This document shows, one piece after another, positions 6,625 through 64,000 of a stretch of 64,000 bases of DNA; positions within the stretch are counted from its first letter, which is position 1, and each line of letters opens with the position of its first letter. A program made the position numbers and the translations under genes. The notes beneath the pieces were generated by a model, which did no database searches, was not told where the DNA came from, and worked only from the letters and a program-made list of their open reading frames with translations. The stretch is taken from assembly GCA_022478985.1 (NCBI GenBank), contig JAKSZP010015895.1:1-64000 (forward strand). The letters are read 5' to 3'. This DNA is from Massospora cicadina. Lineage: Eukaryota > Entomophthoromycota > Entomophthoromycetes > Entomophthorales > Entomophthoraceae.

Positions 6625-6930
6625 TATTATGAGAAGGATTTCTAATGGTAGTTTATAAGCCCAGTGCCATTGCCTCCCTGGTTTGATACTGGTGGTGACC
6701 CTAATCAGGGTACAATTTGATATAATTAAAGTTTGCACACCAATGCCCAGAAATTGAGACAACAAAAATAATGCAGTTCATGGAGTACCTGCCCTATCAG
6801 AAAACTGCATGTGGTGGTTTTACAGGGTTTAACTCATCTATCTTCCTTTCAATTCTCTTTATTGGTAAAGTAACTTTGTCCTTAGGTTGAACTACCCTAG
6901 ATAAATGAAATAATAATCATAAGTTTTTTT
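6625..6930 (+). mobile_element. tRNA-derived SINE, copy b
   Basis: A head with a B-box-like CTGGTTTGATACTGG is followed by TTGCACACCAATGCCCAG, shared with copies a and c. The 3' end, TTTGTCCTTAGGTTGAACTA followed by CCCTAGATAAATGAAATAAT, resembles the LINE tail ATTTGTCCCAAGGTTGGCCC. The exact left end and a TSD were not found, so the 5' limit is approximate. The 60-codon reverse ORF inside it is chance. Confidence 0.5.
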
Positions 6931-7076
6931 GTTTTTTACGTATAAAGAATAATTTAATATATATATATATATTACAATTAGATAGAAAGTATAAGTTATA
7001 TAGTACTATTATTTAACAATGTGATTCTGTGATAGTCTGTCAATATGACAATATCTTATATCTTGTATTTATTCAA

Positions 7077-15750: not shown

Positions 15751-16463
15751 GCCTGGCTCTATGGATATATGAGACTAAGACAAAAAGCGCTCATAGAATC
15801 ATGGTTCCCACTCTGGTTTCTCCACACAGATCCTTTCCTTCACATCTGCTCCATAGTAGGGGAAACCCCCTCAGAGTAGCGCACCAACCCCCCATACCTA
15901 GCAGTCCCGCTGGCAACAGGGGTAACTTGAGTACCCTAGGGTTCCCAATTTATTATATTTTTGTTAGTTAATCTCTTAGTTTCACGTATATTTGGTAATG
16001 TCCATCCCCTGGTCAGCTTAACTCAGTTAAATAAAATAATAATAATAATTTTATTTGAGGTGGGCCAACCTTGGGACAAATATGCCACACTGAAGAGAGG
16101 GGAAAAAGTGAAATAAAAAGGGAGCTGTGACCTAAACCCAAGTACCAGGGGAGAACGTTGTGGCCAGTGTTCCCATGGACCTGGCGGTGTTGGAGGGGGT
16201 TTGCTTAAGCTGCTCATTAAATTTATGCCATTGAGGCAGGTTTGCATTTCTGGGTTGACAGTTAGAAAGGGTTTCAGAAGCCAGCTCTGCATCATCCTCT
16301 GAAGTTGGTGTGGAATTGCTTTTCCAAACAACTAAATATTAAAAACTTTAGTTAAATTTTTATTAAATCAATTGCAAATCTCAACAGGATTTGGGGCCAG
16401 GTTATAAATTGCCTCAAGATAAATAATGTAAATTGTACATAGGGATAATGCAAAAAAAATTGC

Positions 16464-19400
16464 TCAGAGCAATTCTGGGATTGGTGATTCAATATTAAGT
16501 GCCATAAAATTTGTGATTGGACAGAGTTCAGTGGGTACGCTGTTGGGTGCCATCAGTGGCCACACTAGTTTCCATACAAGCTGGGCCGTTGGGCACTCTT
16601 TCATCCTATGCAGCAGGGTGTCTTTTGTGCTGCATACTCTGCAGGGCTCCTGGGTTGAATTAGACTTCTCAGCTGTTTGGTAGGCTCTGTGCAGGCATTG
16701 CCAGACATGCGCCCTGATTTTTGGGTGAAGTAGATTATGGGTTGCAAATTTCCATTTTTTTTTTTTTTGAGTTTTTTCATCATATAGCTGATCATTATGA
16801 TCCAGAAGGTTGATATGGGATAGGGTTTGTGCTCTTGGCAGGGTTATTTTGCCACTGAGACTTGTGCGCTCCTGCATTCCTGGGTGTAGGCATGGTTTAC
16901 AAACCCTCAACTGCGTGCCCCCTTGTGATACTGAGAGGGAACAGCCACATGTCTCAACAGATGATCTTCAATACTGAATGAGAAAAATTTGAGGACTGGT
17001 GTAGGCTGTGGGCATTTGGATTAGCTGCCAGGTAAGACAGGAGGGTGTTTCAGGCTGTGTAATTGGCAAGTCTGAGGTCCCTGGCCAGGTTGATTTGTGC
17101 AGCATGCGGCCAGTGGTTCAGTTTGGGGTTTGGGCTTGTTAATCTGACTATCCGCTTACCAAAAATTTTATCAGATTGGGTGACATGGTCAGTGAGGCCT
17201 AGGCCTCCTTCTGCTCTTGGTCCATAAAGCAGGCCAATTTATATTGGGGCTCTTCTGCCTTCCCTTAGCCATGATTGCAGTAAGGCCCTGATGCGGTCAT
17301 GGAAGTTTGAAGAGAAGGGAACAACTGTGGCTGGGAACCAGATGATTGGAAGCAGGAGGGAATTCACAATTGCAACTTGCCCCATGAGTCCCATTTGCCT
17401 CCCTCTGAGAGAGGCAATGTGGGATGTGAGCTTTCAGATGAGCCCATCCTCAATCCTGGGAAGTTCTGGCCCGTTGGGGTTCAGGGTGATGGCCAGGTGT
17501 TTTACTGAGATGCCTGAAGGCGTCACCCCAAATGGGGCCCAGTTCTGCCCAGTTTTTGTTATTTTTAGATATTGGGGGGTGGCAGGGATGGTTGTTGCAT
17601 GGTGGAAAATTGTTTTTGTTTCACTGAATAAATTTGATTTGCTTTTGATTTTTTTGAGATTTTGCTTCTGTTTGCTGCAATCCTTTTTGATTTTTGCATT
17701 GGACATTGCGAGTTACGTGGATTTGGCTGGGGAAACAATCCACCACCAGTTGCCCCCTCTCTGGCAATGTGCAGAGGCCTGCAGTTAAGGTCTCAACTTC
17801 TGATTGGGTAAATTGTTTTTAAATTATTTTGATTGGGCTCCAAGGCTTCATAAATTTCATGTAAAGTGGTGCAAATTGGTTTTGGCAGCTTGGCCACTTG
17901 ATTTGTCACCAATTATGTCATACTCAACCATGGTCAGAGACCTGCAATTAATGTCTCAACAATTGATTGGTGTGTTCAAATTATTTAAATTGCCTATTTT
18001 GGATTCCAAGATATTAGAATTACGCATTAAATTATTTAAATTAATTTTGTCAGGGCAGCTGGCTGATCCATCACTGATTACATCATACTCAGTGGCAGTC
18101 TGAGACCTGCAATTAAGGTCTCAGTTTCTGATTTGCTGTAGTAAATTGTTTAAATTGTTCAAATTAATGCTTGGAAACTTCAGTGTTTCACTTTAAATAT
18201 TTGAGTTGATTTTGCCATTTTGGCCATTCAACTCACTGCTGATGCTATCATTTTTGGGTGAATTCTGAAACCCGTAATTAATTATATTGCTTACCTGCTT
18301 ATCTAAACTGATTTTTGCATTTAAATTCATGTCAGATGATGTGATGATGACATCATTATTGACATTGAAAGCTGGCTCCTGATTCATTGCATCTATGACT
18401 GATCTGACTTTTGATTTTTCTGTATGCATTTTTTGGATATTGTAATTTGTTCAGTTTTGCTTCTTCTGACTCACCATGACATCAGTCTTCCTCAGATGTT
18501 CACGGCGCCAGGTATATAAGGCCAAGTTGTCACCCACCCCAGCTATTATTTCTGGCTGAGTGGGGGTGGCAGGTGGTAGGGTGGCTCTTGCTGGAGCCAG
18601 TTGGCAAACCATGGTTTGAGTCTTGCCACCCCAGTTTTTTGGATGGGTGATTTTTGTGCCACTGACAGGTAAGATTTCTGTTTTCATTTTTGTTAATTTT
18701 TGTGTTACTAGCTGACCCATATTGTTAGATGATTGACTCAAGTTTTTCCAAGTCCTCTGAGCTTGAAATTCCTATAATTGCATCAATGGCATATGCCAGA
18801 GCTTTCAGCGGTGGCTGCCTGCACATGTTGATGCCTTCCAGCTCTGCCTCCGCTGCCCACAACACTGGGTTGAAAGCCAGGTTGTACAGCAGGGGGCTCA
18901 GCGGGGCCCCCTTGCCTCACCCCACATTGCTGTGAGATTTTGGCTGACAGATCCTGGGGCCTAAAACTGACATTTTTGTCGCCATTGTTTGCTTCATTGC
19001 CCAGTTGATGAATTTTTGTGGCAGGTGTGTTCTCTCCATGCAACAGTGTAATTATGACCAGTCTACCCTTTTGTAAGATTTTTGTTGGTCTAGGAATACT
19101 AATGCTCCGCTAGAGTTAGACTGGGTGATGTTGGTGACCATATGGATGTTGTCCCAGATGCTCCTGGCGGGGACAAATCCGTGTTGGTTTGTCAAGATCA
19201 TATTTTTTCAATAGTCCCTAAATGTCATGCCAGGATTTTTGAAAGCAGTTTGGAGTCAGAGTTTATCACCAAGATTAGATGCCAGTTGTCAAGTGAATGT
19301 GTGTCTCCTTTTTTGTGAAGGAGAACCAGCAAGGCTTCATCCCCCTAGGCATGAGCTTGGTCTCATCCAAGCATCTGTTTAGCACAACAAGGAGGATGTG

Positions 19401-20840
19401 GCTGAGGAGGTCTGGGAATGTCATAGTCAATTTGTATGGGATCCCATTAGGTCCTGGGATCTTCCATTGGGGAAGGCTCTTGATTGCTGCATTGAGTTCC
19501 TCTTTTTGTTATTGGCGCTGTGAGTGCTGATGTGTCTAGGTTTGGGGGTGGCTCCACCCTCATGAGGGAGGACTTGATGTCCTGAGGTAAGGCGCCCTAG
19601 TTTGAGTATAACTTTGTGTAGTATTCATGGGCTATGCCTGCTAGCGCCTCTGGGAGCGTGCTATGGTACCATCTTGCACAGCTAGAGCATCAAATTAGGT
19701 TTGTGATGTCCAGGTAGTGAACTGATACATGAAGAATTTTGACAATTTTTCACCCTTGGCCACCACTTTTGCTCCTGCCCGTAATGCAAGCTGTTCCTGT
19801 GCTTGCTTGCTGAAACCTTGGATCTCGAGGGTGAGCCAAACCCATTCTCTCATCCAATTGGTGCTGTGGCCCGCTTGAGGGGCATTTCTCTTGAGATGTG
19901 CATGTTGGTTGATCACCCTTTGGAGTGCCGATGCCTCAGCCACGTGCCTCCTGGAGGATGTACATTTTGCAGCAGCGACCATTTTAGCCTTCAGACATCC
20001 CCAGGTCTGGATTGGGTCTTTGCTGAGGGGGTCCCTCACATCATTAGCCAGGGTTCAGACTGCTAACCAGTGGGTGAAGTCATTAGCTACAGTTTGTGGG
20101 TGAATCTTTTCCCATTTTGGGCGTGGCTGTGCCTGCCATTCTGACCTCAGGATAATCCTTACCAACCAATGGTCTGAGTTGGTGACACTAACTGTCTTAA
20201 AGTTTTCTATCATACATTTGAGGGTCGCTGGGATGCAGATTAGGTCGATATGTGTCATTGAGAGCAGCTCGCCCTCTCTGACGTGTGGCCTTGTCATGTG
20301 CTCAAGGGTTGGTGCATCCTTTGGGTGTGCATCGATGACCCCTAATGTGGCCATGAGTGATGCAAGCTCCTGGTGCCCGCGGGGATGATCAATGTCCAGG
20401 AGCTATCTGTCTGTGGCTCTTGTGAGCCAGCAGTACATGTCCCCTAGAAGGAAGCTGTTTTCTGGTAGTGGTAAATTGGCCACCTCTTTAAAGAAGTTGG
20501 CGCGGTTGCTGGGGATATTGGAGGCATAAGTATTGATAAGGGTGTACTGATTTCCCTGCTAGGTGATCATGATGGCCTGGACTCTCCCCCTAGGTGATCA
20601 TTTGAGGATGTGACAGTGATGCCCCTGTCTGGTTTGATCATGAATTTGAAGAGGGTAGACCAAGTTGAGAAGTTTGGGAGGAGCATCCAGGTTCACTTGG
20701 GCTCCTCCCCCCTCAGGCAGTAACTCTCCTAGATCACCAGAATGTCAGTTGGAGGGTTTTACAGGTGCTGAATTTTCTTGGCCCAGGACGTGGCAGCCTT
20801 CAGCCCTGCAATATTGCATGTCCCTATTGTGATTGGATTG
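16464..20840 (-). pseudogene. LINE-2 ORF2 (endonuclease/reverse transcriptase)
   Basis: The endonuclease begins near 20840 with ITIGTCNIAGLKAATSWAKK and ends with SDHWLVRIILRSEWQ (about 20150). The RT region (about 19700-18720) keeps HGENTPATKIHQLGNEANN-type shadow frames of the palm and the KTEILPVSGTK segment. A ~1.1-kb insertion follows (see the separate entry), then the thumb with GVTPSGISVKHLAITLNPNG and a C-terminal part (16910-16464) with CRVCSTKDTLLHRMKECP, the expected Cys/His motif. Many frame changes are present. The domain set is as in LINE-1. Confidence 0.75.
17560..18690 (-). other. Insertion domain within LINE-2 RT
   Basis: Between the RT segment KTEILPVSGTK and the thumb segment SVKHLAITLNPNG lies a stretch with no counterpart in LINE-1. 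It is Asn-, Ser- and Lys-rich, with MNQEPAFNVNNDVII, NLNAKISLDKQVSNIINYGF and repeated LRSQ- and NLMHN-like phrases. The same block is in LINE-3 at the same place. Limits are approximate. Confidence 0.6.
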
Positions 20841-20913
20841 CCCGATCTTCCCAATCTGCCTTAATTGGATAGTTCTGGGCCATTCAACTCAGTTCTATCA
20901 CAATTTAAGTGAT

Positions 20914-22256
20914 TCAAGCTTCGAGTACCCATTTGGGAGCTCTGCGCCACTGAGCTGAGCTGAGCTGAGGCAGCGCTTGCTCTATCAGTAGCTGGGAACC
21001 ATCTTGAAAATTTTTGTAACCCTTGTTCTGAGAGTTTTTCATTGAGAGCACAGGTAGGTGTTTGGAGTTGTAAACTCCAGCCTGAACCAGCACCAGTTTG
21101 TTTTCCACTCCCATGGGCTGCGTCTGTCCCTGTGTTGCCACCTGTATCTGCTGGTTTGCTGTCCCCTCTATCAGCTCTTCAGGGGTCTCTCTCAGGATCT
21201 CAAAACAGTTTACATTTCCAGCATTATTAGTTTCTGGGATCTGATTCACTTTTTAGCTTCCTTGGCCTTCACTCTAGCCTCTGCTTGTCGCTTCACTTTC
21301 TCCTCTGCTTTGCATTGTTTGGCAGTGACTGGATCGATGATCTGATACTCACCATGTCCCCCCAGTTGGATGAGGTTATTGCCACCTGAAGTTCACTAAA
21401 ATTTTTTCATTTTTGTCCAAGCCTTAGGGTCCTCCTCCTCCTGCTGCTTGCCTACAGCAGGGCATGCATGGGCCCAATGACCAAGCGCCTAGCAGTGCTG
21501 GCAGATGGGAGGAGCCTTCTCTGGGGTGACTTTAAAGGGGTCAGATGCTTGTCTCTCCAGCAAGATGAACTGTGCAACACGTGTGATCAGGTTGGGGTCA
21601 GCTTCTACTTCAGGCTTGGGGTCAATAACCACAATCACCTTTCTGCTGCAGAGTTCCAGCATGAGGTGAAAGCGTTGCAGCTCAAACTGCTTTACTCTTC
21701 CATACTCCTCAAGGCCTTTGATTAGCTCCACTTCAATGAAGTTATGGGGGAGATCAGTTGGGAGATCTTCAAAGGAGATGAAAAGGTCATTATCCTTGTT
21801 CCAGCAGGTGCAGTGTACCTTGATGCAGTGGGGCACGCCTTTGATGGTTACCTCAATGATGACCTTTGCCATGGCGTCCGCCTGCTCCGCCATGGCAAAG
21901 CCAATATCTACAAATCCTCAACAGAATTCTTGCTTAATAAAAACAGCATTTTTGAAATAAATTTTTTTTTGTGTGATCGCCAACAAGATCTCTAGGTGTT
22001 TGACCCCAACTTTTCCTCTAACCCCATGATTAATGGGGGAGGAGGGGAATGAATGGCGGATATTAGCACAAAGCATATGCTGGTGCAGCATTTTCAAGTA
22101 CCCTTTGGTAGGGACTTGCATCTGTCATTTGGTCTGGTTCACATGGCTTACCAGGAGCTCCTTGTGGGAGCGTTTGATGCCCATGGGGAACAACATGTTG
22201 GTGGAATTACCACCCTTTGTGATGTTTGCCCAGGACTTCTGATTGGAGTTGTGCAT
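20914..22256 (-). pseudogene. LINE-2 ORF1 (CCHC RNA-binding protein)
   Basis: It starts at the ATG at 22256 (MHNSNQKSWANITKGG). Recognisable parts are GYLKMLHQHML, HLEILLAITQKKIYF, then in another frame ADAMAKVIIEVTIKGVPHC, FISFEDLPTDLPHNFIEVEL and the knuckle start PPICQHC (about 21490), which continues as LGHWAHAC in the next frame. The C-terminal part (21249-20914) is MNQIPETNNAGNVNCFEIL, hydrophilic and without a known fold. The order matches ORF1 of LINE-1 (FISFDLLPTNLPHKVIEEEL). Several frameshifts make it non-functional. Confidence 0.7.
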
Positions 22257-22345
22257 CTTTTCCTTCTGTATCAATTATTGAATGTTCAAGTTTAACTTAA
22301 TCTCCTTTGCTCTATAAAAGTGATGCTTAGGAGAAAGAAAAGCCA

Positions 22346-22347
<2 letters not shown>

Positions 22348-22409
<62 letters not shown>

Positions 22410-22780: not shown

Positions 22781-22797
22781 TAATAATAATAATAATT
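22781..22797 (+). repeat. Short (AAT)n junction
   Basis: Five units separate the head of SINE c from the 3' end of LINE-3. On the minus strand this is the (ATT)n tail of LINE-3 into which SINE c was inserted, or which served as its target. Confidence 0.8.
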
Positions 22798-23113
22798 TTA
22801 TTTGAGGTGGGCCAACCTTAGGACATTTATGACACACCAAAGAGAGGGGGAAAAGTGAAATAAAAAGGGGGCTGTGACCTAAACCCAAGTACCAGGGGAG
22901 AACGTTGTGGCCAGTGTTCCCATGGGACCGGCAGTGTTGGAGAGGGTTCGCTTAGGCTGCTCATTAAATCTACGCTGTTGAGGCAGGTTTGCATTTCTGG
23001 GTCAATGGTTAGGAAGGGTTTCAGAAGCCAGCTCTGCATCATCCTCTAAAGTCAGTGTGGAATCGCTTTACTAACAACCAAATATTGAATGCTTTAGTTA
23101 TATTTTTGTTAAA

Positions 23114-26100
23114 TCAATTGCAAATCTTGATGGGATTTGGGGCTGGGTTGTGAATTGCCTCAAGATAAATTGTGTGAATTGTCCATAAGGATAATGCAAA
23201 AATAACCGGTTGGAGCAATTCTGGGCTTGGTGATTCAATATTAAGTGCCATAAAATTTGTGATTGGACAGAGTTTGGTGGGTACGCTGTTGGGTGCCATC
23301 AGTGGCCACACTAGTTTCCATACAAGCTGGGCCGTTGGGCACTCTTTTATCCTATGCAGCAGGGTGTCTTTTGCGCCGCATACTCTGCAGTGCTCCTAGG
23401 TTGAATTAGACCGCTCAGCTGTTTGGTAGGCCCTGTGCAGGCATTGCTAGATGTGCACCCTGATTTTCAGGTTAAGTAGATTATGGGTTGCAAATTTCCA
23501 AAATTTTTTCGAGTTTTTTCATCATATGGCTGATCATTACAATCCAGGATGTCAATATGGGATAGGGTTTGTGCTCTAGGTGGGGGTATTCTGCCACTGA
23601 GACTTGTATGCCCCTGCATTCCTGGGTATAGGCATGGTTTGCAAACCCTCAACTGCGTTGCTCCCTTGTGATACTGAGAGGGAACAGCCACATGTCTCAA
23701 CAGATGATCTTCAATACTGCATGGGAAAAATTTGAGGACTGGTGTGGGCTGTGGGCATTTGGATTAGCTGCCAGGTAAGACAGGAGGGTGTTTCAGGCTG
23801 TGGGATTGGCAAGTCTGAGGTCTCTGGCCAGGTTGATTTGTGCAGCGTGCAGCCAGTGGTTCGGTTTGGGGTTTGGGCTTGTTAATCTGACTATCCACTT
23901 ACCAAAAATTTTATCAGATTGGGTGACATGGTCAGTGAGGCCTAGGCCTCCTTCTGCTCTTGGTCTGTGAAGCAGACCAATTTGTATTGGGGCTCTTCTG
24001 CCTTCCCACAGCCATGACTGCAGTAAGGCCCTGATGCAGTTGTGGAAGTCTGAAGAGAAGGGAACAACTGTAGCTGGGAACCAGAGGATTGGAAGCAGGA
24101 GGGAATTTATGACTGCAACTCGCCCCATGAGTCCCATTTGCCTCCCTCTAAGGGAGGTGATGCAGGATGCAAGCTTCCAAATGAGCCCATTCTTGATCCT
24201 GGGCAGGTCTGGCCCGTTGGGGTTCAGGGTGATGCCCAGATGTTTCACTGGGCTGCCCAAAGGCGTCACCCTGAATGGGGTCTACATTCTGCCCAGTTTT
24301 TTATTTTTGGATATTGGGGGTGGCGGGGATGGTCATTGCATGCTGAAGAATTGTATGTGATTCACCAAATAAATTTAATTTTATTTTTGATTTATTTTGT
24401 TTTTTTTGAATTTTTGCTTCTGTTTGCTTCAATTCTCTTTGATTTTTGCCTTAGATTGTTAAATTACAATTTGAGTAAAATTTAATTCATTGCCAGCTAT
24501 GTCATCTTGGCAATGATTTGAGACTGGCAATTAGGGTCTCAACTGTCAATTGGTCAAATTAAATTTTTTAAACCTTTAAATTGAATTCTGAGACTTTGGA
24601 ATTATGCATTAAATTTCAACAGTTGATTTCATCAGGGCTAGCGCCCAATTTATCACCAATTACATAATTTTTGGTGAAGCTCTGAGACCTTAAATTAAGA
24701 TCTCAGTTGTTAATATTAGAGTCTAAATTACTTAAATTATTTGATTTAGGTTTTGAGACATTGAAATTATGCATTAAATTGTCTAAATTAATTTTGCCAG
24801 TATGGCTGGCTGATCCATCACTGATTATGTCATACTCAGTGGCAATCTGAGACCTGCACTTAAGGTCTTGGTTTTTGATTTGCTTTTTTAAATTGTTTAA
24901 ATTGCTCAATTTAATGCATGAAACTTCAGTGTTTTGCATTAAATTATTTGAAATGATTTCATCATTATGGCCATTTGACTCACTGCCAATGCTGTCATTT
25001 TTAGGTGATTTCTGAAACCCATAATTAATTGTATTGCTTACCTGCTTATCTAGACTGATATGTGCATTTAAATTCAGATCAGCTGATGCAATGATGACAT
25101 AATTATTGACATCAAAAGCTGGTTCCTGATTCATCACCTCTTTGGCAGATCTAACTTTTGACTTTCTGTATGCATTTTTAGATATTGTCATTTGTTCAAT
25201 TTTGCTTCTTCTGACTCACCATGACATCAGTCTTCCTCAGATGTCTACGGCGCCAGGTATATAAGGCGTGGTTGTTACCCACCCCAGCTACCATTTCCAG
25301 CTGAGTGAGGGTGGCAGGTTGCAGGGTGGCTCTTGCTGGGACCAGTTGGCAAAATCTGGTTTGAGTTTTGCCACCCCAGTTTTTGGGTGGGTGATTTTTG
25401 TGCCACTGACAGATAAGATTTCTGTTTTCTTTTTTTTTTTTTAATTCTTGCGTTACTAGCTGATTCATATTGTCAGATGATTGACTTGAGTTTTTCAAAG
25501 TCCTCCAAACTTGAGATTTCTATGACTGCATCATTGGCATACGCCAGAGCTTTCAGCAGTGGCTGCCTGTGTATGTCAATGCCTTCCAGCTCTGCCTCTG
25601 CTGCCCACAACACTGGGTTGAAAGCCAGGTTGTACAGCAGGGGGCTCAGCGGGTCCTCTTGCCTCACCCCACATTGCAGTGAGATTTTGGCTGACTGGAA
25701 CCTGGGGCCTAAAACTGACATTTTTGTCACCATTGTTTGCTTCATTGCCCAGTTGATGAATTTTTGTGGCAGATGTGTTCTCTCCATGCAACAGTGTAAG
25801 TATGACCAGTCTACCCTGTCATAAGATTTTTGTTGTTCTAGGAATACTAATGCTCCACTAGAGTTAGACTGGGTGATGTTGGTGACCATATGTATGTTGT
25901 CCCAGATGCTCCTGCTGGGGACAAATCCGTGTTGATTTGTCAAGATCACATTTTTTCCAATGGTCCCTAGACGTCATGCCAGGATTTTTGAAAGCAGTTT
26001 GGAGTCAGAGTTTATTAGCAAGATTGGATGCCAGTTGTCAAGTGAATGTGTGTCTCCTTTTTTGTGGAGGAGAACCAGCAGGGCTTCATCCCCCCAGGCA

Positions 26101-27570
26101 TAAGCTTGGTCTCATCCAAGCATCTGTTTAGTGTGGCGAGGAGGATGTGGCTGAGGAGGTCTGGGAATGTTGTAATTAATTTGTATGGGATCCCATCAGG
26201 TCATGGGCTCTTCCATTGGGGAAGGATCTTAGTTGTTGCGTTTAATTCCTCTTCCTATTTTGGTGCTGTGAGTGCTGACATGTCAAGGGTTGGGGGTGGC
26301 TCCACTCTCATGAGGAAGGACTTGATGTCCTGAGGTAAGGCGCCCTTGTTTGAATATAACTTTGTGTAGTATTCATGGGCTATGCCTGCTAGCGCCTCTG
26401 GGAGCATGCTATGATACCATCTTGCGCATCCAGAGCATCACATTAGGTTTGGGATTTCCAGGTGGTGAACTGACGCATGAAGAATCTCAATGATTTTTCA
26501 CCCTTGGCCACCACTTTTGCTCCTGCCTGTAATGCAAGCCATTCCTGTGCTTGCTTGCTGAAACCTTGGATCTTGAGGGTGAGATAAACCCATTCCCTCA
26601 TCCAATTGATGCTGTGGCCCACTTGGGGGGCATTCCTCTTGAGATGTGCACATTGGTTGATCGCCCTTTGGAGCACCAATGCCTCAACCACGTGCCTCCT
26701 GGAGGATGTAAATTTCACGGCAGTGACCAATTTGGCCTTCAGGTGCCCCCAGGTCTGGATCAGGTCTTCACTGAGGGGGCCCCCACATCACTAGCCAGGG
26801 TTCAGACTGCTAACCAGTGGGCAAAGTCAACATTAGCTACAGTTTGTGGGTGAATCTTCTCCCATTTCAGGCGTGGCTGTGCCTGCCATTCTGACCTCAG
26901 GGTAATCCTTACCAACCAATGGTCCGAGTTGGTGACACTAACTGTCTTGAAATTTTCTATCATACATTTGAGAGTCTCTGGGATGCAGATTAGGTCAATA
27001 CATGTCATTAAGAGCAGCTCGCCCTCTCTGACGTGTGGCCTTATCATATGCTCAAGGGTTGGCGCATCCTTTAGGCGTGCATCAATGACCCCTAATGTGG
27101 CCATGAGTGATGCAAGCTCCTGGTGCCCGCGGGGATGATCAATGTCTGGGGGCCATCTGTCTGTGGCTCTTGTGAGCCAGCAGTTCATGTCCCCTAGGAG
27201 GAAGCTGTTTTTTGTGATAGTGGTAGATTGGCCACCTCTTCAAAGAAGTTGGCGCGGTTTCTGGGGATGTTGGGGATGTAAGTATTGACTAGAGTGTACT
27301 AATTTCCTTGCCAGGTGATCTAGATAGCCAGGACTCTCCCCTCTAGGTGATCAGTTGAGGATGTGACAGTGATTCCCCTGTCTGGTTTGATCATGAACCC
27401 GCAGAGGGTGGACCAAGTTGAGAAGTTTGGGAGGGGCATCTGAGTCCACTTGGGCTCCTCCCCTCTCAGGCAGTGACTCTCCTGGATCGCCAGGATGTCA
27501 GTTGAAAGGTTTTACAGGTGCTGAATTTTCTTGGCCCAGGACGTGGCAGCCTTCAGCCCTGCAATATTGC
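23114..27570 (-). pseudogene. LINE-3 ORF2 (endonuclease/reverse transcriptase)
   Basis: The endonuclease C-terminus is at 27188-26802 (ASLMATLGVIDARLKD, SDHWLVRITL). The RT palm is open from 25949 to 25473 with NQHGFVPSRSIWDNIH, LVFLEQQKSYDRVDW, GVRQEDPLSPLLYN and, at the catalytic site, AYAND in place of FADD, so the second catalytic Asp follows an Asn. The ~1.1-kb insertion comes next, then the thumb (24269-23793) with SPVKHLGITLNPNG and GRVAVINSLLLPILWF, and the C-terminal remnant (23311-23114) VPTKLCPITNFMALNIESP. The C-terminal Cys/His motif lies near 23330-23400 in a broken frame. Confidence 0.75.
24290..25410 (-). other. Insertion domain within LINE-3 RT
   Basis: It is the counterpart of the LINE-2 insertion. 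An open stretch (25191-24703) reads SKVRSAKEVMNQEPAFDV and has repeated phrases (LNLNAHISLDKQVSN, DLKCRSQIATEYDIISD, KINLDNLMHNFNVS, SNNLMQNTEVS), implying about 40-60-residue degenerate repeats. It is strongly hydrophilic, with no recognisable domain. The frame stays open for 163 codons, longer than expected for neutral AT-rich DNA. Confidence 0.6.
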
Positions 27571-27612
27571 ATGTCCCTATTGTGATCAGATTTCTGATCT
27601 GCCTGATCCACC

Positions 27613-29009
27613 TTAATTGGATAGTTCTGGGCCATTTGACCCAGATCTATCACAATTTAAGTGATTCAAGATTTGAGTACCCATTTGGGAGCTCTGCGTC
27701 ACTGAGCTGAGCTGAGCTGAGGCAGCACTTGCTCTATCAGTAGCTGGGCCAACTTGAAAATTTTTGTAACCCTTGTTCTGAGAGTTTTTTGTTGAGAGCA
27801 CAGGTAGGTGTTTGAAGTTGTAACCTCCAGCCTGAACCAGTGCCAGTTCATTTCCTGCTCCCATGGGCTGCATCTATCCCTGTATTGCCGCCTGCATCTG
27901 CTGGTTTGCTGTCCCCTCCACCAGCTCTTTGGGGGTCTCTCTCAGGATATTAAAACAGTTCACATTTCCAGCATTGTTAGTTTCTGGGATCTGATTCACT
28001 TTTTTAGCTTCCTCAGCCCTCGCTCTGGCCTCTGCTTGTCACTTCACTTCCCTTATTTGCATTGTTTGGCAGTGACTGGTTCAACGATCTGATACTCGCC
28101 ATGTTCCCCCCAGTTGAATGGGGTTATTGCCACCTGAAGTTTACCAAAATTTTCATCGTTTTCGTCCATTTCCTTGGGGTCCTCCTCCTCCTTCTGCTTG
28201 CCTACAGCAGGTCATGCATGGGCCTGATGCCCAAGCACCTGGCAGTGCTGGCAGATGGGAGGGGCCTTCTCTGGGGTAACTTTAAAGGGGTCAGATGCTT
28301 GTCCCTCCACCAAGATGAACTGTGCGACACATGGGATCAGGTTAAGGTCAGCTTCTACTTCAGGCTTAAGGTTGATAACTGCGATTGTCTTTCTGCTGCA
28401 GAGTTTCAGCATGAGGTGGAAGTGCTGCAGCTCAAACTGCTTTACTCTTCCATACTCCTCAAGGCCTTTGATTAGCTCCACTTCAATGAAGTTATGGGGG
28501 AGATCAGTTGGGAGATCTTCAAAGGAGATGAAAAGGTCATTCTCCTTGTTCCAGCAGGTGCGGCATACCTTTATGCAGTGGGGTATGCCTTTGACAGTTA
28601 CCTCTATTATGACCTTTGCCATGGCGTCCACCTGCTCTTCTGTGGTGAAGCCAATATCTACAAATCCTCAACAGAATTCTTGCTTAATAAAAACAGCGTT
28701 TTCAAAATAAATTTTTCTTTTTTCTGTGATAGCTAACAAGATCTTCAGGTGTTTGACCCCAAAGTTCACTCTAACTCCATGCTTAACAGGGGAGGAGGGG
28801 GGTAAATGGCGGATGTTATTATAAAGCATATGCTGGTGCAGCATTTTCAAGTACCCTTTGGTAGGGACTTGCATCTGTCATTTGGTCTGGTTCACATGGC
28901 TTACCAGGAGCTCCTTGTGAGAGCATTTGATGCCCTTTGGAAATGACATGTTGGTGGAATGTCCACCCTTTGTGATGTTTGCACAGGACTTCTGATTGGG
29001 GTTGTGCAT
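27613..29009 (-). pseudogene. LINE-3 ORF1 (CCHC RNA-binding protein)
   Basis: The start ATG at 29009 parallels LINE-2 (MHNPNQKS). Then come MQVPTKGYLKMLHQHML, DAMAKVIIEVTVKGIPHC, FISFEDLPTDLPHNFIEVEL and the complete zinc knuckle CQHCQVLGHQAHA(C) near 28215. The C-terminal part (27873-27613) carries QPMGAGNELALVQAGGYN. Two or more frameshifts occur; otherwise it is the best-preserved ORF1 of the minus-strand pair. Confidence 0.75.
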
Positions 29010-29136
29010 CTTTTTCTTCTGTACCAATTATTGAATGTTCAAGTTCAACTTGAAGCTTTCTTCACTCTCTAAAAGTGACGCTTAGTAGAAAGAAAAGCAA
29101 TTATAATAATAATCATGAATTGTAATAATAATAATA

Positions 29137-52672: not shown

Positions 52673-53353
52673 TGTAACGGATCAGGATATACTTGATCCA
52701 CACATTACTTTGATAGGAAGGGCCTCAACTAGGGGAGAAGTTTCAGAGGATGATTTGTGAGAGTCATAGTTGGTGGTGAGTCAGATGGGGAGTTGTGGTA
52801 TTGAGTGTGAGAGATTTGACATTCTAAGAATGAGATGCATCAGAGAAATTATGATGTCAGGGTTATGGATGGCGTGGATGATGATCTGGAAGGATGAGTA
52901 GTCTTTGCAAGCAATGTGTTGGATGGTGTTTGAAAAAGCCTTGCATAGAAGAGGGAGCTTATTAGAAGACCAGCAGAGTGATATTTATTAGGAGATGGTT
53001 GGGGCCTGAATGGCCAGTTTTGTCTTATAAGAAGAATCAAGGAAATTCAATTAAATTGGTTGCTATTTTAATCTTATTCTATTCTACTAGAATTTTATTA
53101 TTGTATCCAAGTGATGAGCTCACTAGTGAGCTTAGCATGGAGTTGGCGTCATTATCAGCCTTCTCATGGAGCCAGACCCTGCTTTTGATGTGCAGCGTTA
53201 TGGGAACAGTGGTGAGGAAATATGTAGCAATGACGAGACATGGCAGGAGTGTTCAGGAATGGGCTTCTGCGGGAATGTCCCTAGTTTGGTCAGCAACATG
53301 GCTTTTACTACCCAATTCCTTTGTGGCATATTGGCGCAAGCCCATCCGTTACA
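52673..53353 (+). repeat. 5' LTR of element B
   Basis: 681 bp, TGTAACGGATCAGG to CCATCCGTTACA. It aligns with 57925-58668 throughout. It lacks the micro-retroposon at 58114-58160 (the intact site reads AATGAGATGCATCAGAG at about 52829) and the ~40-bp internal duplication near the start of the 3' LTR. Confidence 0.9.
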
Positions 53354-53475
53354 TTAGACAAAACTCAGATACATTTTTGTCAGTCTTTTGGGGTCCCCAA
53401 GAAGAGGTGGTGGCCCCAGGAGGGGAGGAATGGTATCTCCATGTCTTGACAGTGGTGATGGTGAGTTTCTCATGA
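53137..53475 (+). CDS. LTR-encoded membrane ORF, family 1, copy 1
   Basis: The first in-frame ATG is at 53137; the frame is open upstream to 52978. The core reads MELASLSAFSWSQTLLLMCS, VMGTVVRKYVAMTRHGR, then SLVWSATWLLLPNSFVAYWR followed by KPIRYI, where the last codons CGT TAC A are the LTR end itself. The frame runs about 41 codons into the internal region. Two hydrophobic segments (SAFSW...GTVV and ASAGMSLV...FVAYW) flank a basic loop. A one-base deletion relative to copy 2 puts the original ATGAGCTCA out of frame. The function is unknown and no family is recognised. Confidence 0.55.
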   Translation: MELASLSAFSWSQTLLLMCSVMGTVVRKYVAMTRHGRSVQEWASAGMSLVWSATWLLLPNSFVAYWRKPIRYIRQNSDTFLSVFWGPQEEVVAPGGEEWYLHVLTVVMVSFS

Positions 53476-54260
53476 ACATTTGTGATAAAAGGGTGGTTTG
53501 GGTATGTAGTGCAAGACCTGTGGAGGTGGAGGAAAGCCATGTAATATCTAAATTTCCAAAAGGGCGGGCAACATTGCCAATGGAAGCTTTGGATAAAATT
53601 CATCAGGTGGTATCATGAGTTTGGTTTCAGGCATGAATGACTCAAGTGACAGGAAGAGAGTTCCATTTCTCGCTGCATATTGCACAATTTGTGGAGGCAT
53701 TACCATTGGACCAGGTGGGGTGGGTGCAAGAACTGATTGAGGAGAAAGGTTGCCTTCCAGGTTCCATGAATGAGTGTGTAGATTGTATTGATCAGGACGC
53801 CTGTCTGGACAAGGCGCAGGATGAGGAGTTATTGGCTTTGTTGATGGTGATCCAGGGGCGTGGATCAGTTGATGAATATGCGCAGATTTTTGACCTTTAG
53901 TGAAAGCAACATGAGTGTCAGATTCACTTTCATTGTAAATGCTTTGACAGGGGTTGCAAGAGGATATGTTGGTAGCTATGGCAACTGCCAAAATTCAGGG
54001 TACATTGGTGGAGAAAATTGCATTGGTGGTACAGGTAGAGAAACAATTGGCTTTGGCATAAAACTGGTGGGAGGATTCTGTGTCTCCAAAAAGGGGCTAG
54101 TCGCCTGCAGTGGTTTGTAGAGGTCAAGGAGGGTGGCAGGGATCACCCAGAGATTTTGGAAATATCCATAAGAGTTTTGCCAGGGAAACACTGAAGAGTT
54201 AGGGAGAATAGGAGGTCAGGGACATGGGAAGGATAATGCTCCCAAACCTACCTTACTCCA
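53388..54260 (+). pseudogene. Element B gag
   Basis: The pieces, in changing frames, are FPKGRATLPMEALDKIHQVV (53618), then TGREFHFSLHIAQFVEALPL and DQDACLDKAQDEELLALLMV (53637-53900), then a Gly-rich part (about 53980). I see no zinc knuckle. Its position between the 5' LTR and the protease supports the call more than its sequence does. Confidence 0.45.
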
Positions 54261-54659: not shown

Positions 54660-57500
54660 GTTATAGCCCTAGTGGATACAGGAGCTGAGGAAAACTATGT
54701 GAAATTTGCCCTGTCAGAAAGATTGAAGTTAAAATCCAGAAGGGTCCTGAGGTGGTGTTTGCTGATGTGTCAGGGAGAGCTCCCTCATGGCGTTTGGAGC
54801 CTTGGGTAGTTGTTCAGCAGAAACTGTTTTGGTTTAAAGAAAGTTTCTGTGCAAATAGAAATCTGGCCCATCCTGTGGTATTGGGGATGTAGTGGTGTCA
54901 TCAGTTTCAGTCCCAGTTTGATTTGCCATTTAATACAGTTAGTTTAAATCCTTGGATGGGGTCTCTGATGAGGTGAAAGATGGTGGTTGGAAGTGATGTT
55001 CCAAATAAATTCAGAAATATGGGTGGAATGCAGGAGGGAGAGTTACCGGCTCAATATCAAAACTTTGTGGATGTATTTGGTCCTATAAGGAACTCACCTT
55101 TTTTCCCTACTGGTTCTTTTGCGTTTTTATTCCAGTTTAAGGAGGGTTCAGAGCTTCCACGGGGATGTCCAGTATACCCTCTTAACCAATGATCAAAAGG
55201 GGCATTGGAGGGCCATGTGAAACCAATGTTGGATAAAGGATCAATTGATCCTTCTAAGTTACCGGTTGTGCCTCCTGTTTTACTGGTGCCAAAAGTGAGT
55301 GGCAAACTATGCCCATGTGTGGATTTCTGAAGTCTGAATATGGTCACTGAGCCTTAGCCTGATCCATATCCAATGTCGTTGGTAGAGAATATTCTCCCAA
55401 TGGTTATTAGTTGCACCATTTTTACAAAGTTAGATTTCAAGGATGCATTCAATCAAGTACCACTGAGACTGGAACATCATAAATACACCGCATTTAAGTG
55501 TCACTTGGGGATGTTTCAATATTTTATGATGCTATTTGGTCTTAGAAATGCCACAGCGGTGGTTCAGTGGATGATCAATCATGTCCTTGGAGGGTTGATC
55601 AATCAATGTTGTACCGCTTAAGTGGATGATATCTTGGTTTTTTCACAGTCCCAAGAGAATCATGTCTGAGATGTCTGGGAAGTTTTGGGGGCAATTGGCA
55701 GGATGGGTCTGAGATTTAAACCTTTTAAGTGTGAATTAATCAGAGCTCAGTGACGTTCCTAGGCAATGTGGTGTTCCAGAATGGATTAGGAGTATGTCTG
55801 AATAAACTGCATGCGGTAGAAGCATGAAAGGCCCCTACTGATCAAATGAGGGTGCAGAGTTTTTGGGAACATTGAACTTCCTATGACAGTCTGTGAGAAA
55901 TCTATCCCAAATGGCCTTACCTCTCACGCATCTATTGCAGGCTGTTTCGTTCATGTGGTGAAGAAAAGAGGAGCAGGCATTTGAATTATTAAAGAATAAG
56001 TTACTTTTGGCGCCTGGCTTGGCCCATCCGGATCCTGGGAAGCTATATGAGGTAGAAACTGAGGATTCAATTTTTCTGTAGGTGCGGTGTTACTACAGGA
56101 GGGGGAAGACGGGCTCAAACACCTTATGTTTTATTTTGGCTGCAAGATGATCCCCACCAATACTAATTATTCAATATATGATAAGGATTTTCTGGTGGTG
56201 ATGGCGGCCTTGCAGGGATGGCAGCACCACCTGCTCTATGCCTGACAACCCTTTTGTTGTTTGAACAGACTGTAGAGTGTTGAAAAATTATCAGGAACCA
56301 AGGAAGATGGACCAGCGGAAAGCCATATAGCATGTGGAGATAGTCCAAACAATTTCTGGATAGAAAAAAGGCCAGTTTTGACAAATATTCTAGAAGACTG
56401 GTTGAGTCAGGATTCAGGCTTAGCATATAAGAAGGATAAATTGGAGGGATTTAATACAGCTACTATGTTCTGACCAGATCAATTTTCCATGATTGAGGGT
56501 GGGAGAGTGATTAGGGGGAGGAATTCCGCTGGGAGCAAATAAGGTCAGGATTTGGATGGTGATTAAAAGCTGAGATAAAGGAAGGACAGCCACATGGGCG
56601 CCATAGATCCTTCATGAAGAGGCGTGGGGTGGTATACCTTGATTCTCATGTTTGGGTTCCAAATCTATTATTACAACGGGAGATAATTCAGGTCTCTCAT
56701 GATCATCCATTGGCAGGTCATTTAGGAGTGGAGAAGATGGTGGAGTTGGTTTGATGGGACTATTTGTGGTTGGGCTTTAGAAGGATATCAGGAAGTATGC
56801 GAGGGAGTATTTAGTATGTGCAAAATCAAAACCCTTTAGGAAACCTCCATCAGGTAAGTTAAACCTATTGCATATACCATATGTGCCATGGAGTTCTATT
56901 AACATTGATTTTATAATGAGACTTCTGAAGGTGCAGGGGAAGAATGCAGTTATGGTGGTCGTGGATAGATCGACCAAATACGCCAAGTTTTTCCCATGTA
57001 CAGGGAGTTTTTTGGCAAAGGATGCAGTAAGGATTTTCATTGATAAAGTATTCTCCTGGCATGGATTACCTGAGGAAATTGTTTTGGACTATAGTCCACA
57101 TTTTGTCTCAAAATTCTGGTCAGGTTTGCTGGGAAAATTGGAAATCAGGATTGGTCAGTCCTCAGCGTACCATCCTCAATCTAACGGACAGATGGAGAGG
57201 GTGAATTAGATACTTGAGCAGTAAATCTAGTGTTACATTTCCAATTGGCAGGATAACTGGGTTCCATGGGCTTGGTTGGCCCAACTCACTTATAACAATC
57301 ATTGTCAATCATCAATGGGAATAACTCCATTTTTCATAAATCATGGTCTAAATCCCAGATCAAATGGGGGATCCGTGGGTAGAGTGTGTCAGGGGGTGGA
57401 TGAGATGGCATGTACCATGGAAGATATAAGAAAGAGGCTACAAGGAAATTTGGAGCAAGCATTGGCTCAGCAGAAGCATCAGGCATATTGACAAAGAGTG
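54660..57500 (+). pseudogene. Element B pol (protease, RT, RNase H, integrase)
   Basis: The protease has ALVDTGAEENYVKFAL with DTG at 54675. The RT has TKLDFKDAFNQVPL (55427), FQYFMMLFGLRNATAVVQ, and at 55619-55630 stop-VDD, where TAA stands in the Tyr position of YVDD. RNase H has VGAVLLQEGEDGLKHL and IYDKDFLVVMAALQGW (56080-56240). The integrase zinc finger reads HDHPLAGHLGVEKM (56700). Its core is open from 56868 to 57206 with SINIDFIM, VMVVVDRSTKYAKFF, LDYSPHFVSKFW and HPQSNGQMERVN, so all three catalytic residues (D, D, E) remain. Scattered stops elsewhere. Confidence 0.85.
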
Positions 57501-57924: not shown

Positions 57925-58668
57925 TGATTTAATTGATCAGGATGCACTTGATCTGAACATTGCTTTGGATCAGGCTGCACTTGATACTCACATTACTTTG
58001 ATATAAAAGGTCTCAACTAGGAGAGAAGTGTCAAAGGATGTTTCAAGAGTCAAAGTTGTGGTGAGTTGGATGGGGAGTTTTAATATTGAGTGTGAGAGAT
58101 TTGACATTTCAAGATTGAGATGCATCCCATCTAGTACTAAAAAAAAATTGAGATGCATCCAAAAAATATGATGTCAGGGTTATGAATAGTTGGATGATGA
58201 TCTGGTGGAATATGAAGTCTTTGCAAGCAATGAGTTGGATGATGTTTGAGAAAGCCTAGCATAGGAGAGGTAGCTTATTAGAAGAACAGCATAGCGCTAT
58301 TTATTAGGAGATGGTTGGGGCCTGAATGGCCAGTTTTTATAAGAAGAATCAGGGAAATTCAAATAAATCTCTTGCTATTATAAATCTTATTCTATTTTAT
58401 TAGAATTATATTATCATATCCAAAATGATGAGCTCAACTAATGAGCTTGGTGTAACGTTGGCATCATTTTCAGCCCTCTCATGGAGCCAGACCATGTTGT
58501 TGATGTGCACCGTCTTTGGAACAGTGGTTTTGGAACATGTAGCAATGACGAGACATGGCAGGAGGGTTTGGGGATGGGCTTCTGTGGGCCTGTCCCTAGT
58601 TTGGTCAGCAACATGGCTCTTACTACCCGATTTCTTTGTAACATATTGGCGTGAGCCTGCCTGTTACA
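57925..58668 (+). repeat. 3' LTR of element B
   Basis: 744 bp. It starts TGATTTAATTGATCAGG directly after ACAGGGGGG and ends GCCTGTTACA. The GATCAGG(A/C)TGCACTTGAT phrase is present twice (57934 and 57968), a ~40-bp tandem duplication not seen in the 5' LTR. With the 33-bp micro-retroposon insertion this accounts for its greater length. Confidence 0.85.
58114..58160 (+). mobile_element. Micro-retroposon, copy 3 (19 nt plus 14-bp TSD)
   Basis: ATTGAGATGCATCC at 58114-58127 and 58147-58160 encloses CATCTAGTACTAAAAAAAA. The 5' LTR has the uninterrupted site, so the 33-bp difference is an insertion after element B integrated. Here the A-run is on the plus strand; in copies 1 and 2 it is on the minus strand. 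Confidence 0.9.
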
Positions 58669-58733
58669 CATCAGATGTCCCCTCCAAAAAGTCTAAGGGA
58701 TATTCATATATAGATGGGGATGGTTATTTATAA
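58425..58733 (+). CDS. LTR-encoded membrane ORF, family 1, copy 2
   Basis: 102 codons from ATGATGAGCTCA: MMSSTNELGVTLASFSALSW, SQTMLLMCTVFGTVVLEHV, AMTRHGRRVWGWASVGLSLV, then WSATWLLLPDFFVTYWREPA. It ends 65 bases beyond the LTR in the flanking element C. This copy has the most convincing start codon of the three. The predicted layout is a short N-terminus, a hydrophobic segment, a basic loop (TRHGRR), a second hydrophobic segment and a W(R/K)xPxRYI-type tail (CYT here). Confidence 0.55.
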   Translation: MMSSTNELGVTLASFSALSWSQTMLLMCTVFGTVVLEHVAMTRHGRRVWGWASVGLSLVWSATWLLLPDFFVTYWREPACYTSDVPSKKSKGYSYIDGDGYL

Positions 58734-63050: not shown

Positions 63051-63335
63051 TTATTTCATAGATAAAACACTAAACTGCTTAGTTAAAACCATTAAAATGT
63101 AACGCACTGGCTCCTTCCAATGAGCCACAAATGAGTTGGGCAATAGAATCCATGTTACAGACCATAGGGCTGACAGGGCTCCTGATACTACTCTCCTTGT
63201 GCGCGCGCTACAAGATTGGACAAGCACCCCCTGAAAGACAGTTGCAAGTATACTTAACCCCAGCAACATGCCTTGACTCCAAGACAAGGTATAAAGGGAG
63301 GCAATAGCTCTCCCAAGCTCACTCTCAAAGTCCAA
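63051..63335 (-). CDS. LTR-encoded membrane ORF, family 1, copy 3 (diverged)
   Basis: It is open from a TTG at 63335 to 63051, crossing the LTR end at 63098. It reads DFESELGRAIASLYTLSWSQ, GMLLGLSILATVFQGVL, ARTRRVVSGALSALWSV, TWILLPNSFVAHWKEPVRYI. Compared with copy 1, codons differ silently at Ser (AGC/AGT), Gln (CAG/CAA), Asn (AAT/AAC), Ser (TCC/TCA), Ala (GCA/GCT) and Leu (CTA/TTG), while LLPNSFVAxW and RYI remain. The TTG stands where copy 2 has ATG, and a TAA lies just upstream, so the start may have been lost. This copy gives the best evidence that the frame was selected. Confidence 0.55.
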   Translation of the reverse strand: MDFESELGRAIASLYTLSWSQGMLLGLSILATVFQGVLVQSCSARTRRVVSGALSALWSVTWILLPNSFVAHWKEPVRYILMVLTKQFSVLSMK

Positions 63336-63572
63336 TTCTTATTGATTCAAGCCAAACATGGCTGCAGTTAGGCAATATCTTTAAAATAAACTCAAGTATA
63401 AATATATGAATTTTAAGTTCTTTTATTTAATATTGGGCCAGGTTGATAGAAAACAGAACTGAGAAGCCTCCAGCTCCCAGTTCCTTCCCTATATACACAT
63501 GCTAAAAGCTAATATAAAATATAACACAAGCTTATGGTGCTAATCTGACTGATGCTTGGTGTAAACCTTACA
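63098..63572 (-). repeat. Isolated LTR related in its ORF to element B LTRs
   Basis: On the minus strand the sequence ends AGTGCGTTACA, like CCGTTACA of element B, and a possible start is TGTAAGGTTTACACC at 63572. No TSD was found, so the start is uncertain. Outside the ORF I see no clear alignment with the element B LTR, implying a distant relative. Confidence 0.45.
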
Positions 63573-64000
63573 GCAGGATCGCGGAATCCTCACTCAATGG
63601 TTCTGTGCCAGTTCCAATCCTCAACAGTTCCGCGCCAGTTCCATTTTAAATCCCAAATGAACCGCGAAACTTCCAAGCACCCATTCCATTCCATTCTTGA
63701 TTCGAATCCAAATCAAATCTCGAAACTACCCATGTTACTTGATTCCCATTTTTCCTCAACTTGGACGCCCATCTTGCTCCTTGGCCTCCTTCAAGCTCCT
63801 GCCCCTTAGGCGTCCTTGCCAGGACCAATGCCCCCACCTCCTCCATACATCCAGACACAGCCTGCCCTGTCTTACCAAAGATCAGGGCAATGTGATGCTG
63901 AGGATAGACCTCAACCGTCACATAAAATATCAATTCAAGCAATCACTAATTGCTTGGTAATACCAAAATAAACTTTTTTGGACAACCAAAAACCATCTAC
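63573..64000. other. Unassigned window end
   Basis: The stretch is less AT-rich than its surroundings and has two near-repeats of CAGTTCC(G/A)(C/A)GCCAGTTCCA-like sequence (63607-63645). Frames of 85-98 codons are open on both strands, but none is recognisable. Confidence 0.3.

What the first reader, a model, noticed from the sequence alone, without database searches (positions are those of the whole stretch)
63051..63335. Small two-helix protein encoded inside LTRs and kept under coding constraint
Three copies of one ORF occur at the 3' end of LTRs: 53137-53475 and 58425-58733 (the two LTRs of element B) and 63335-63051 (a diverged LTR on the other strand). Seen directly: the pattern EL...AS...SWSQ..LL...TV...R..R...LWS.TW.LLPNSFVA.W..P.RYI is shared. 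Copy 1 and copy 3 differ at many third codon positions without changing the residue, while the DNA just upstream does not visibly align. Neutral LTR DNA would not behave like this. LTR-encoded proteins are rare; the sag gene of mouse mammary tumour virus is the classic case, and I know of none in fungal Ty3 elements. Inference: a membrane protein expressed from the LTR, possibly at the 5' end of the genomic RNA.
Basis: partly seen in the sequence, partly recalled or inferred. Interest (0 to 1): 0.88.

Follow-up and report, generated by a model that had tools for sequence, protein, structure and literature searches.

The report
Gag reading frame starting inside LTR
In a giant fungal genome (likely the cicada parasite Massospora), the protein-coding stretch seen inside the ends of a Ty3-type retrotransposon is the start of that element's own Gag polyprotein, and it is predicted to anchor the polyprotein in a membrane.

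Summary
In detail: three LTRs carry one conserved ORF at their 3' end, and between the two LTR families it evolves like protein (49% amino-acid identity, dN about 0.5, dS about 3). The interpretation must change. This is not a separate LTR-encoded protein but the first 80-88 codons of Gag. A TATA-like box is followed after 33-35 nt by the site where the RNA likely starts; the first AUG, 94-101 nt further, is the ORF's start. From it one frame runs through the LTR end and primer-binding site into capsid and protease: 660 codons without a stop in one fetched copy, and open frames of 300 aa or more in 67 of the 150 best-scoring copies. The window's copies look short because they are decayed or lie in a solo or 3' LTR. 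The element is a chromodomain Ty3 element whose primer-binding site complements its own predicted RNA start, as in Tf1. A Gag starting in the LTR is known from Ty1 (recalled); here it is longer and hydrophobic. Two or three stretches could span a membrane and would leave Gag-Pol cytosolic; that step is predicted only.

The parts
52673..53353 (+). LTR1 (5' LTR) of element B, TGTAACGG...CCGTTACA
   Evidence: 80% match to LTR2, target duplication CATCA
57961..58668 (+). LTR2 (3' LTR) of element B; its start is mutated (TGCTTTGG)
63098..63922 (-). LTR3, a solo LTR of the second (c3-type) family, target duplication TTTTA
   Evidence: 91% identical to both LTRs of an element on G000:C1 (L012, L022)
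52982..52988 (+). TATA-like box of LTR1
   Evidence: 34 nt upstream of the R site; spacing 33-35 nt in 5 of 5 LTRs examined
53016..53025 (+). AGTTTTGTCT, predicted 5' end of the RNA and self-primer, complementary to the primer-binding site
   Evidence: 10-nt complement; the second family has AGTTCTGTTT with its own matching PBS
53114..53353 (+). Copy 1, LTR part of the Gag frame: ATG at 53114, a 1-nt deletion shortly after it, then open frame from 53116
53356..53365 (+). AGACAAAACT, predicted primer-binding site, lying inside the Gag frame
53354..53475 (+). Internal continuation of the same frame, conserved with the second family; broken by a 1-nt deletion in this copy
53581..53895 (+). Gag (capsid-side) frame of element B; the U5 AUG is in frame with this point in 8 of 19 copies compared, the window's copy not among them
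55373..55618 (+). Reverse transcriptase fragment
   Evidence: Pfam RVT_1 E 2.2e-10
56868..57206 (+). Integrase core fragment
   Evidence: Pfam rve E 5.5e-5, below curated cut-off
58425..58668 (+). Copy 2: start of the Gag frame in the 3' LTR; what follows is flanking DNA
63098..63359 (-). Copy 3: start of the Gag frame in the solo LTR, ATG at 63359, in-frame TAA at codon 7

Best explanation
The ORF in these LTRs is the first 80-88 codons of the element's own Gag(-Pol) reading frame, which starts at an AUG in the LTR, runs on past the LTR end into capsid and protease, and is predicted to begin with a membrane anchor. Steps shown by sequence: the AUG near the 3' end of the LTR; one uninterrupted frame from it into capsid and protease in other copies; coding constraint on both sides of the LTR end; a stretch just past the LTR end, inside the coding region, complementary to a site 33-35 nt after a TATA-like box. 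Steps inferred: that this site is the RNA start, that the AUG (the first one after it) is used, that the RNA's own 5' end primes reverse transcription as in Tf1, and that the hydrophobic stretches cross a membrane (three of them in the second family) with the N-terminus outside and capsid to integrase in the cytosol. The copy in the 3' LTR or in a solo LTR would then be a by-product of LTR duplication and is not expected in the genomic RNA, because it lies past the likely polyadenylation site. Confidence is about 0.95 for the Gag N-terminus and about 0.4 for the membrane anchor (lowered from 0.45 on rechecking the hydropathy of family B).
For: A copy fetched from the same genome (L051) has one ATG ORF of 660 aa that begins in the LTR and crosses the LTR end. 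Pfam finds Retrotrans_gag at residues 210-290 and aspartyl protease at 440-518, both below curated cut-offs (E 3.8e-4 and 1e-4); its last part reads by eye as the start of RT. In a genome search that scored the best 150 of 15611 first-look candidates, 67 of 150 have open frames of 300 aa or more, 18 of 500 or more, maximum 979, and 132 have no stop in the matched part (lengths counted, stops by eye). In family B, 8 of 19 copies keep the LTR AUG in frame with gag 156 codons on, 5 of them with no indel; this frame holds 56 stops in 3714 codon cells against 278 of 3697 and 117 of 3694 in the other two. Constraint on both sides of the LTR end: L051 against L042 dN 0.50, dS 3.2 in the LTR part; dN 0.43, dS 1.8 beyond it. 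PBS and R-site complement in both families, with two paired differences. First AUG 94-101 nt after that site in 5 of 5 LTRs, the mutated site of LTR2 placed by alignment. Hydropathy peaks of 1.74, 1.38 and 1.68 in residues 32-139 of L051 against one peak of 1.2 or more in the rest of the 660.
Against: In the window itself copy 1 is out of frame with gag (two 1-nt deletions). The 20 B copies fetched were top DNA hits, which favours copies with few indels. One second-family copy (L022) ends after 138 codons; 21 of 150 rows (L022's own place included) reach that end, 19 of them with open frames of 144-159 aa (counted by eye), so a sublineage with a short product is not excluded. L022 has four T where L051 has five, a run in which an assembly error is also possible. 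Family B shows no selection between copies. The membrane step is weak: in L051 only two of three peaks pass the usual 1.6 (recalled threshold); in family B the second stretch does not reach 1.2 (L042: 1.53 and 1.71 only), and the window's copy 1 shows a single peak of 1.38. The AlphaFold model has mean pLDDT 53. No transcript or protein data were available.
Confidence: 0.8

Rival explanations
1. One reading: a separate small membrane protein encoded in the LTR and made on its own, with gag translated from a later AUG.
For: Coding constraint in the LTR; L022 and 20 further rows of 150 end after about 138 codons; an ATG sits 156 codons on, at the gag side, in L038 and other family-B copies.
Against: In 19 B copies no stop in the 156 codons between the LTR AUG and gag is shared by more than 5; the only codon with stops in more than half (10 of 19) is codon 169, past that point, and its states (TGA 9, CAA 3, CGA 3, CAT 2, AGA 1, TAA 1) fit mainly CpG decay of CGA. 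Long open frames in 67 of 150 second-family copies.
Confidence: 0.08
2. The region is the N-terminus of Gag but a soluble helical oligomerisation or RNA-binding domain that never enters a membrane.
For: Hydrophobicity is moderate, in family B above all; the AlphaFold model is helical but of low confidence.
Against: Three hydrophobic peaks lie in the first 139 of 660 residues of L051; basic residues fall between stretches 1 and 2 and after stretch 3, as the positive-inside rule expects for a cytosolic Gag-Pol (rule recalled; residues).
Confidence: 0.45
3. The conservation is on DNA or RNA (packaging signal, primer structure, integrase site) and the open frame is incidental.
For: The 3' end of the LTR and the PBS are functional nucleic acid in such elements (recalled).
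Against: Third positions are the least conserved between families (36/25/50), the in-frame identity of copies 1 and 3 was reached in none of 2000 shuffles, other frames are closed, and dN/dS is 0.11-0.18 in the 3 informative pairs of second-family copies.
Confidence: 0.02

Closest known systems
Ty1 of Saccharomyces cerevisiae (Ty1/copia)
   Same: Gag starts in the LTR (recalled) and the primer-binding site lies inside the GAG ORF (passages of PMC4974528).
   Different: Ty1 is primed by initiator tRNA (same passages) and has the integrase-before-RT order (recalled); here the order is RT then integrase, the primer looks like self RNA, and 80-88 codons lie in the LTR.
Tf1/Tf2 and Tj1 of fission yeasts (self-primed Ty3 chromoviruses)
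   Same: PBS complementary to the 5' end of the predicted RNA (Tj1: passages of PMC4600332), integrase with a Tf2-1-like SH3 domain and a chromodomain, gag and protease in one frame.
   Different: In Tf1 the coding frame starts after the LTR (recalled). I know of no hydrophobic N-terminal domain there (recalled).
MMTV sag
   Same: A protein-coding stretch inside an LTR.
   Different: sag is a separate gene in U3 of the 3' LTR (recalled). Here the stretch is at the 3' end of the LTR and continues into gag.

Membership tests
Ty3 chromovirus | RT before integrase, chromodomain at the C-terminus | tested here: met
   L012, minus strand: RVT_1 E 1.4e-29 in 8834-9460; Chromo E 2.2e-10 and SH3_Tf2-1 E 2.4e-15, both above cut-off, in 6894-7706; integrase match between them
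Ty3 chromovirus | LTR ends TG...CA and 5-bp target duplication | tested here: met
   CATCA, TTTTA, CATAT in 3 of 3 insertions examined
Self-primed (Tf1/sushi) group | PBS complementary to the 5' end of the element's own RNA | tested here: met
   10-nt complements in both families, 33-35 nt after the TATA-like box; a match this long arises in 36 and 34 of 2000 shuffles of the PBS. In LTR2 of element B the site is mutated. The RNA start itself is predicted
Self-primed (Tf1/sushi) group | Primer made by RNase H cleavage of the mRNA 5' end | not testable with these tools
   needs RNA
Ty1-type Gag start | Gag AUG inside the LTR, PBS inside the gag ORF | tested here: met
   L051 660-aa ORF; AUG position in 5 of 5 LTRs; use of this AUG not tested
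Ty1/copia | integrase before RT | tested here: not met
   RT precedes integrase in L012 and in element B
LTR-encoded separate protein (MMTV sag type) | own ORF ending before gag | tested here: not met
   no shared stop before gag in 19 B copies, long frames in 67 of 150 second-family copies; 21 of 150 rows end early
Integral membrane protein | membrane-spanning helices | tested here: inconclusive
   hydropathy and low-confidence helices only

The most novel reading that the evidence does not exclude
A Ty3 retrotransposon makes its whole Gag-Pol as a three-pass membrane protein, with most of the membrane anchor encoded by the LTR itself, so that particles are built on the cytosolic face of a fungal membrane. 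LTR copies across a 1.5-Gb genome would then each carry a promoter plus a first-exon membrane module that host genes could capture.
Probability: 0.33. Interest if true: 0.72.

Novelty: new variant of a known kind. Interest (0 to 1): 0.5.

Why it matters
It shows a Ty3 chromovirus whose LTR does double duty: its 3' end is at once replication signal and 80-88 codons of Gag. I know of no Ty3 Gag with membrane-spanning segments (recalled). If the anchor is real it gives an intracellular element a built-in way to assemble on membranes, a step usually discussed for retroviruses. Practically, LTR libraries and gene annotation in these giant genomes can contain a false small membrane protein: one NCBI gene model from Massospora appears to join a chromodomain stretch to this ORF (the shared chromodomain string is seen in L012).

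Tried and rejected
Pfam with the three window copies: nothing above cut-off; the weak BT1 match (E 0.0094) probably rests on hydrophobic composition. Protein searches: copy 2 found nothing, the three-copy alignment found one 56-aa Massospora model, a 406-aa query found nothing at E 0.01 among 6934 candidates. Viral contigs: no relative. The AlphaFold model was too poor for a fold search, so none was run. A first idea that copy 1 lacks 16 nt relative to the second family (note) was dropped: against its own family it lacks single bases. A third, more diverged LTR copy (L024, ORF from 671 to 914 with a frameshift) could not be followed up in the genome. Whether PBS variants in family B covary with the R site was not tested, because the variants (ACGAAA, ACAAAA, ATGAAA) look like CpG decay of one site. 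Literature: searches listed no paper that I could recognise, from titles and starts of abstracts, as describing this arrangement; most subscription papers are not held.

Full report
Where it is. The window is contig C13714 of a 1.47-Gb assembly. The assembly's first contig has 1,107,499 bases, and the longest scaffold of Massospora cicadina MCPNR19 is given as 1,107 kbp (PMC9584336, first of three parts of the text read). The only protein relative found is a M. cicadina gene model. I take the organism to be M. cicadina, a cicada-parasitic fungus; this is an inference.

What was observed. Element B has two LTRs (52673-53353 and 57961-58668, 80% identical) with the target duplication CATCA. LTR3 (63098-63922, minus) is a solo LTR with the duplication TTTTA. 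All three carry the reported ORF at the 3' end. tblastn links copy 1 and copy 3 at E 7.6e-17, while self-blastn at E 1e-8 shows no DNA match between them. Copy 1 against copy 3 differs at codon positions 36/25/50, with 44% amino-acid identity, dN 0.52 and dS saturated. Shuffling alignment columns never reached the in-frame identity in 2000 trials for copy 1 against copy 3 or L022, or for copy 2 against copy 3, L022 or L012; copy 1 against L012 was reached once. Within families the same test is weak, as it must be at high identity: copy 1 against copy 2 218 of 2000, copy 3 against L022 24, copy 3 against L012 106, L022 against L012 1454. The other frames are closed. So the constraint between families is on protein.

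Why it is not a separate protein. A second-family element on contig C1 (3' LTR in L012, 5' LTR in L022, target duplication CATAT) shows the full start, GCAGC[C/A]ATGTTTGGC near the LTR's 3' end. In its 5' LTR the frame crosses the LTR end and goes on, and the continuation resembles that of window copy 1. L022 ends after 138 codons, but a third copy (L051) has one 660-codon ORF from the same ATG through the LTR end into capsid (Retrotrans_gag 210-290), protease (440-518) and, by eye, the start of RT (both Pfam scores are below the curated cut-offs). In the genome search with the L022 N-terminus the best 150 of 15611 first-look candidates were scored. Of these, 95 have open frames of at least 200 aa, 67 of at least 300, 18 of at least 500, and the longest is 979. 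Against this, 21 of the 150 rows, L022's own place included, reach L022's last residue, 19 of them with open frames of 144-159 aa; L022 has four T where L051 has five just before the frames part.

Family B, to which the window's element belongs, is older. I fetched 20 copies of about 611 nt of the 40 scored, taken from the top of the list. L046 was dropped as a duplicate of L045, and L032 was dropped from the final counts because a second-family LTR is inserted in it; with the window's own copy, 19 were counted. Changes fall evenly on the three codon positions (singletons 90/90/97), so the family has decayed neutrally since insertion. Even so, 8 of 19 copies keep the LTR AUG in frame with the gag side 156 codons on, five with no indel at all, and no stop before that point is shared by more than 5 of 19. 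Stops make up 56 of 3714 codon cells in this frame, against 278 of 3697 and 117 of 3694 in the other two. Among second-family copies dN/dS is 0.17 (L051-L022), 0.18 (L051-L012) and 0.11 (LTR3-L022); L051-LTR3 differs at only three sites.

How it likely works. In 5 of 5 LTRs examined a TATA-like box is followed after 33-35 nt by a site AGTTYTGTYT (mutated in LTR2, placed there by alignment), and the first AUG comes 94-101 nt later and is the ORF start. The ten bases lying 3-12 nt past the LTR end are the exact complement of that site in each family: AGACAAAACT with AGTTTTGTCT, and AAACAGAACT with AGTTCTGTTT. Cross-family matches reach only 6-7 nt. This is the layout described for self-primed Tf1-like elements (PMC4600332, passages). 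Hence the RNA likely starts at that site, the first AUG opens Gag inside the LTR, the ribosome reads through the primer-binding site, and the same stretch also serves reverse transcription. In Ty1 too the PBS lies in the GAG ORF (PMC4974528, passages). The ORF start follows the AATAAA where there is one (4 of 5 LTRs), so the copy in the 3' LTR is not expected in the genomic RNA.

The N-terminal domain. Hydropathy peaks (19-residue windows) in L051 are 1.74 at 32-50, 1.38 at 61-79 and 1.68 at 121-139, against one further peak of 1.35 in the rest of the 660 residues. Copy 3 shows the first two. In family B, L042 has overlapping peaks of 1.53 within residues 7-41 and one of 1.71, while its second stretch does not reach 1.2, and the window's copy 1 has a single peak of 1.38. 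Acidic residues precede the first stretch, and basic ones lie between the first and second and after the third. By the positive-inside rule (recalled) this predicts, for the second family, an N-terminus outside and capsid to integrase in the cytosol. AlphaFold gives helices over these stretches but with mean pLDDT 53, so no fold was compared.

Novelty. A Gag start in the LTR is known from Ty1 (recalled) and self-priming from Tf1; the combination in a chromodomain Ty3 element, with 80-88 LTR codons and a hydrophobic N-terminal domain, did not show in the listings of the searches made. I call it a new variant of a known kind.

Noticed in passing
L031-L050 against the window copy (53114-53705): Strong CpG decay: in columns where at least 3 of 19 copies have CG, the cells read CG 160, CA 137, TG 105 and 35 for the other states listed. 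This suggests methylated, deaminating CpG in this genome and makes CGA-to-TGA stops a recurrent effect of age.
   Followed up: partly
L032 (G000:C9710:44397-44996): A second-family LTR is inserted, on the opposite strand, inside a family-B copy, which suggests that the second family was active after that copy arose.
   Followed up: partly
L024:671-914: A third, more diverged LTR with the same ORF start (MSSESELGQALASFVALSWG...) and the same LTR end, frameshifted.
   Followed up: partly
window 16035-22381 and 22782-29136: Two tandem copies, 87% identical over 6.4 kb, with LINE-like reverse transcriptase frames (the LINE label is from reading the translation).
   Followed up: no
P0001 (Massospora cicadina L0F63_005169): An NCBI gene model that appears to join the element's chromodomain frame to the LTR ORF; likely a prediction artefact, or an LTR-exon capture worth a transcript check.
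   Followed up: no
L020:1950-3313 and 7788-9141: A different element with Ty3-like RT and integrase matches between 1.37-kb direct repeats, 89% identical, and no match to the LTR-ORF profile.
   Followed up: no
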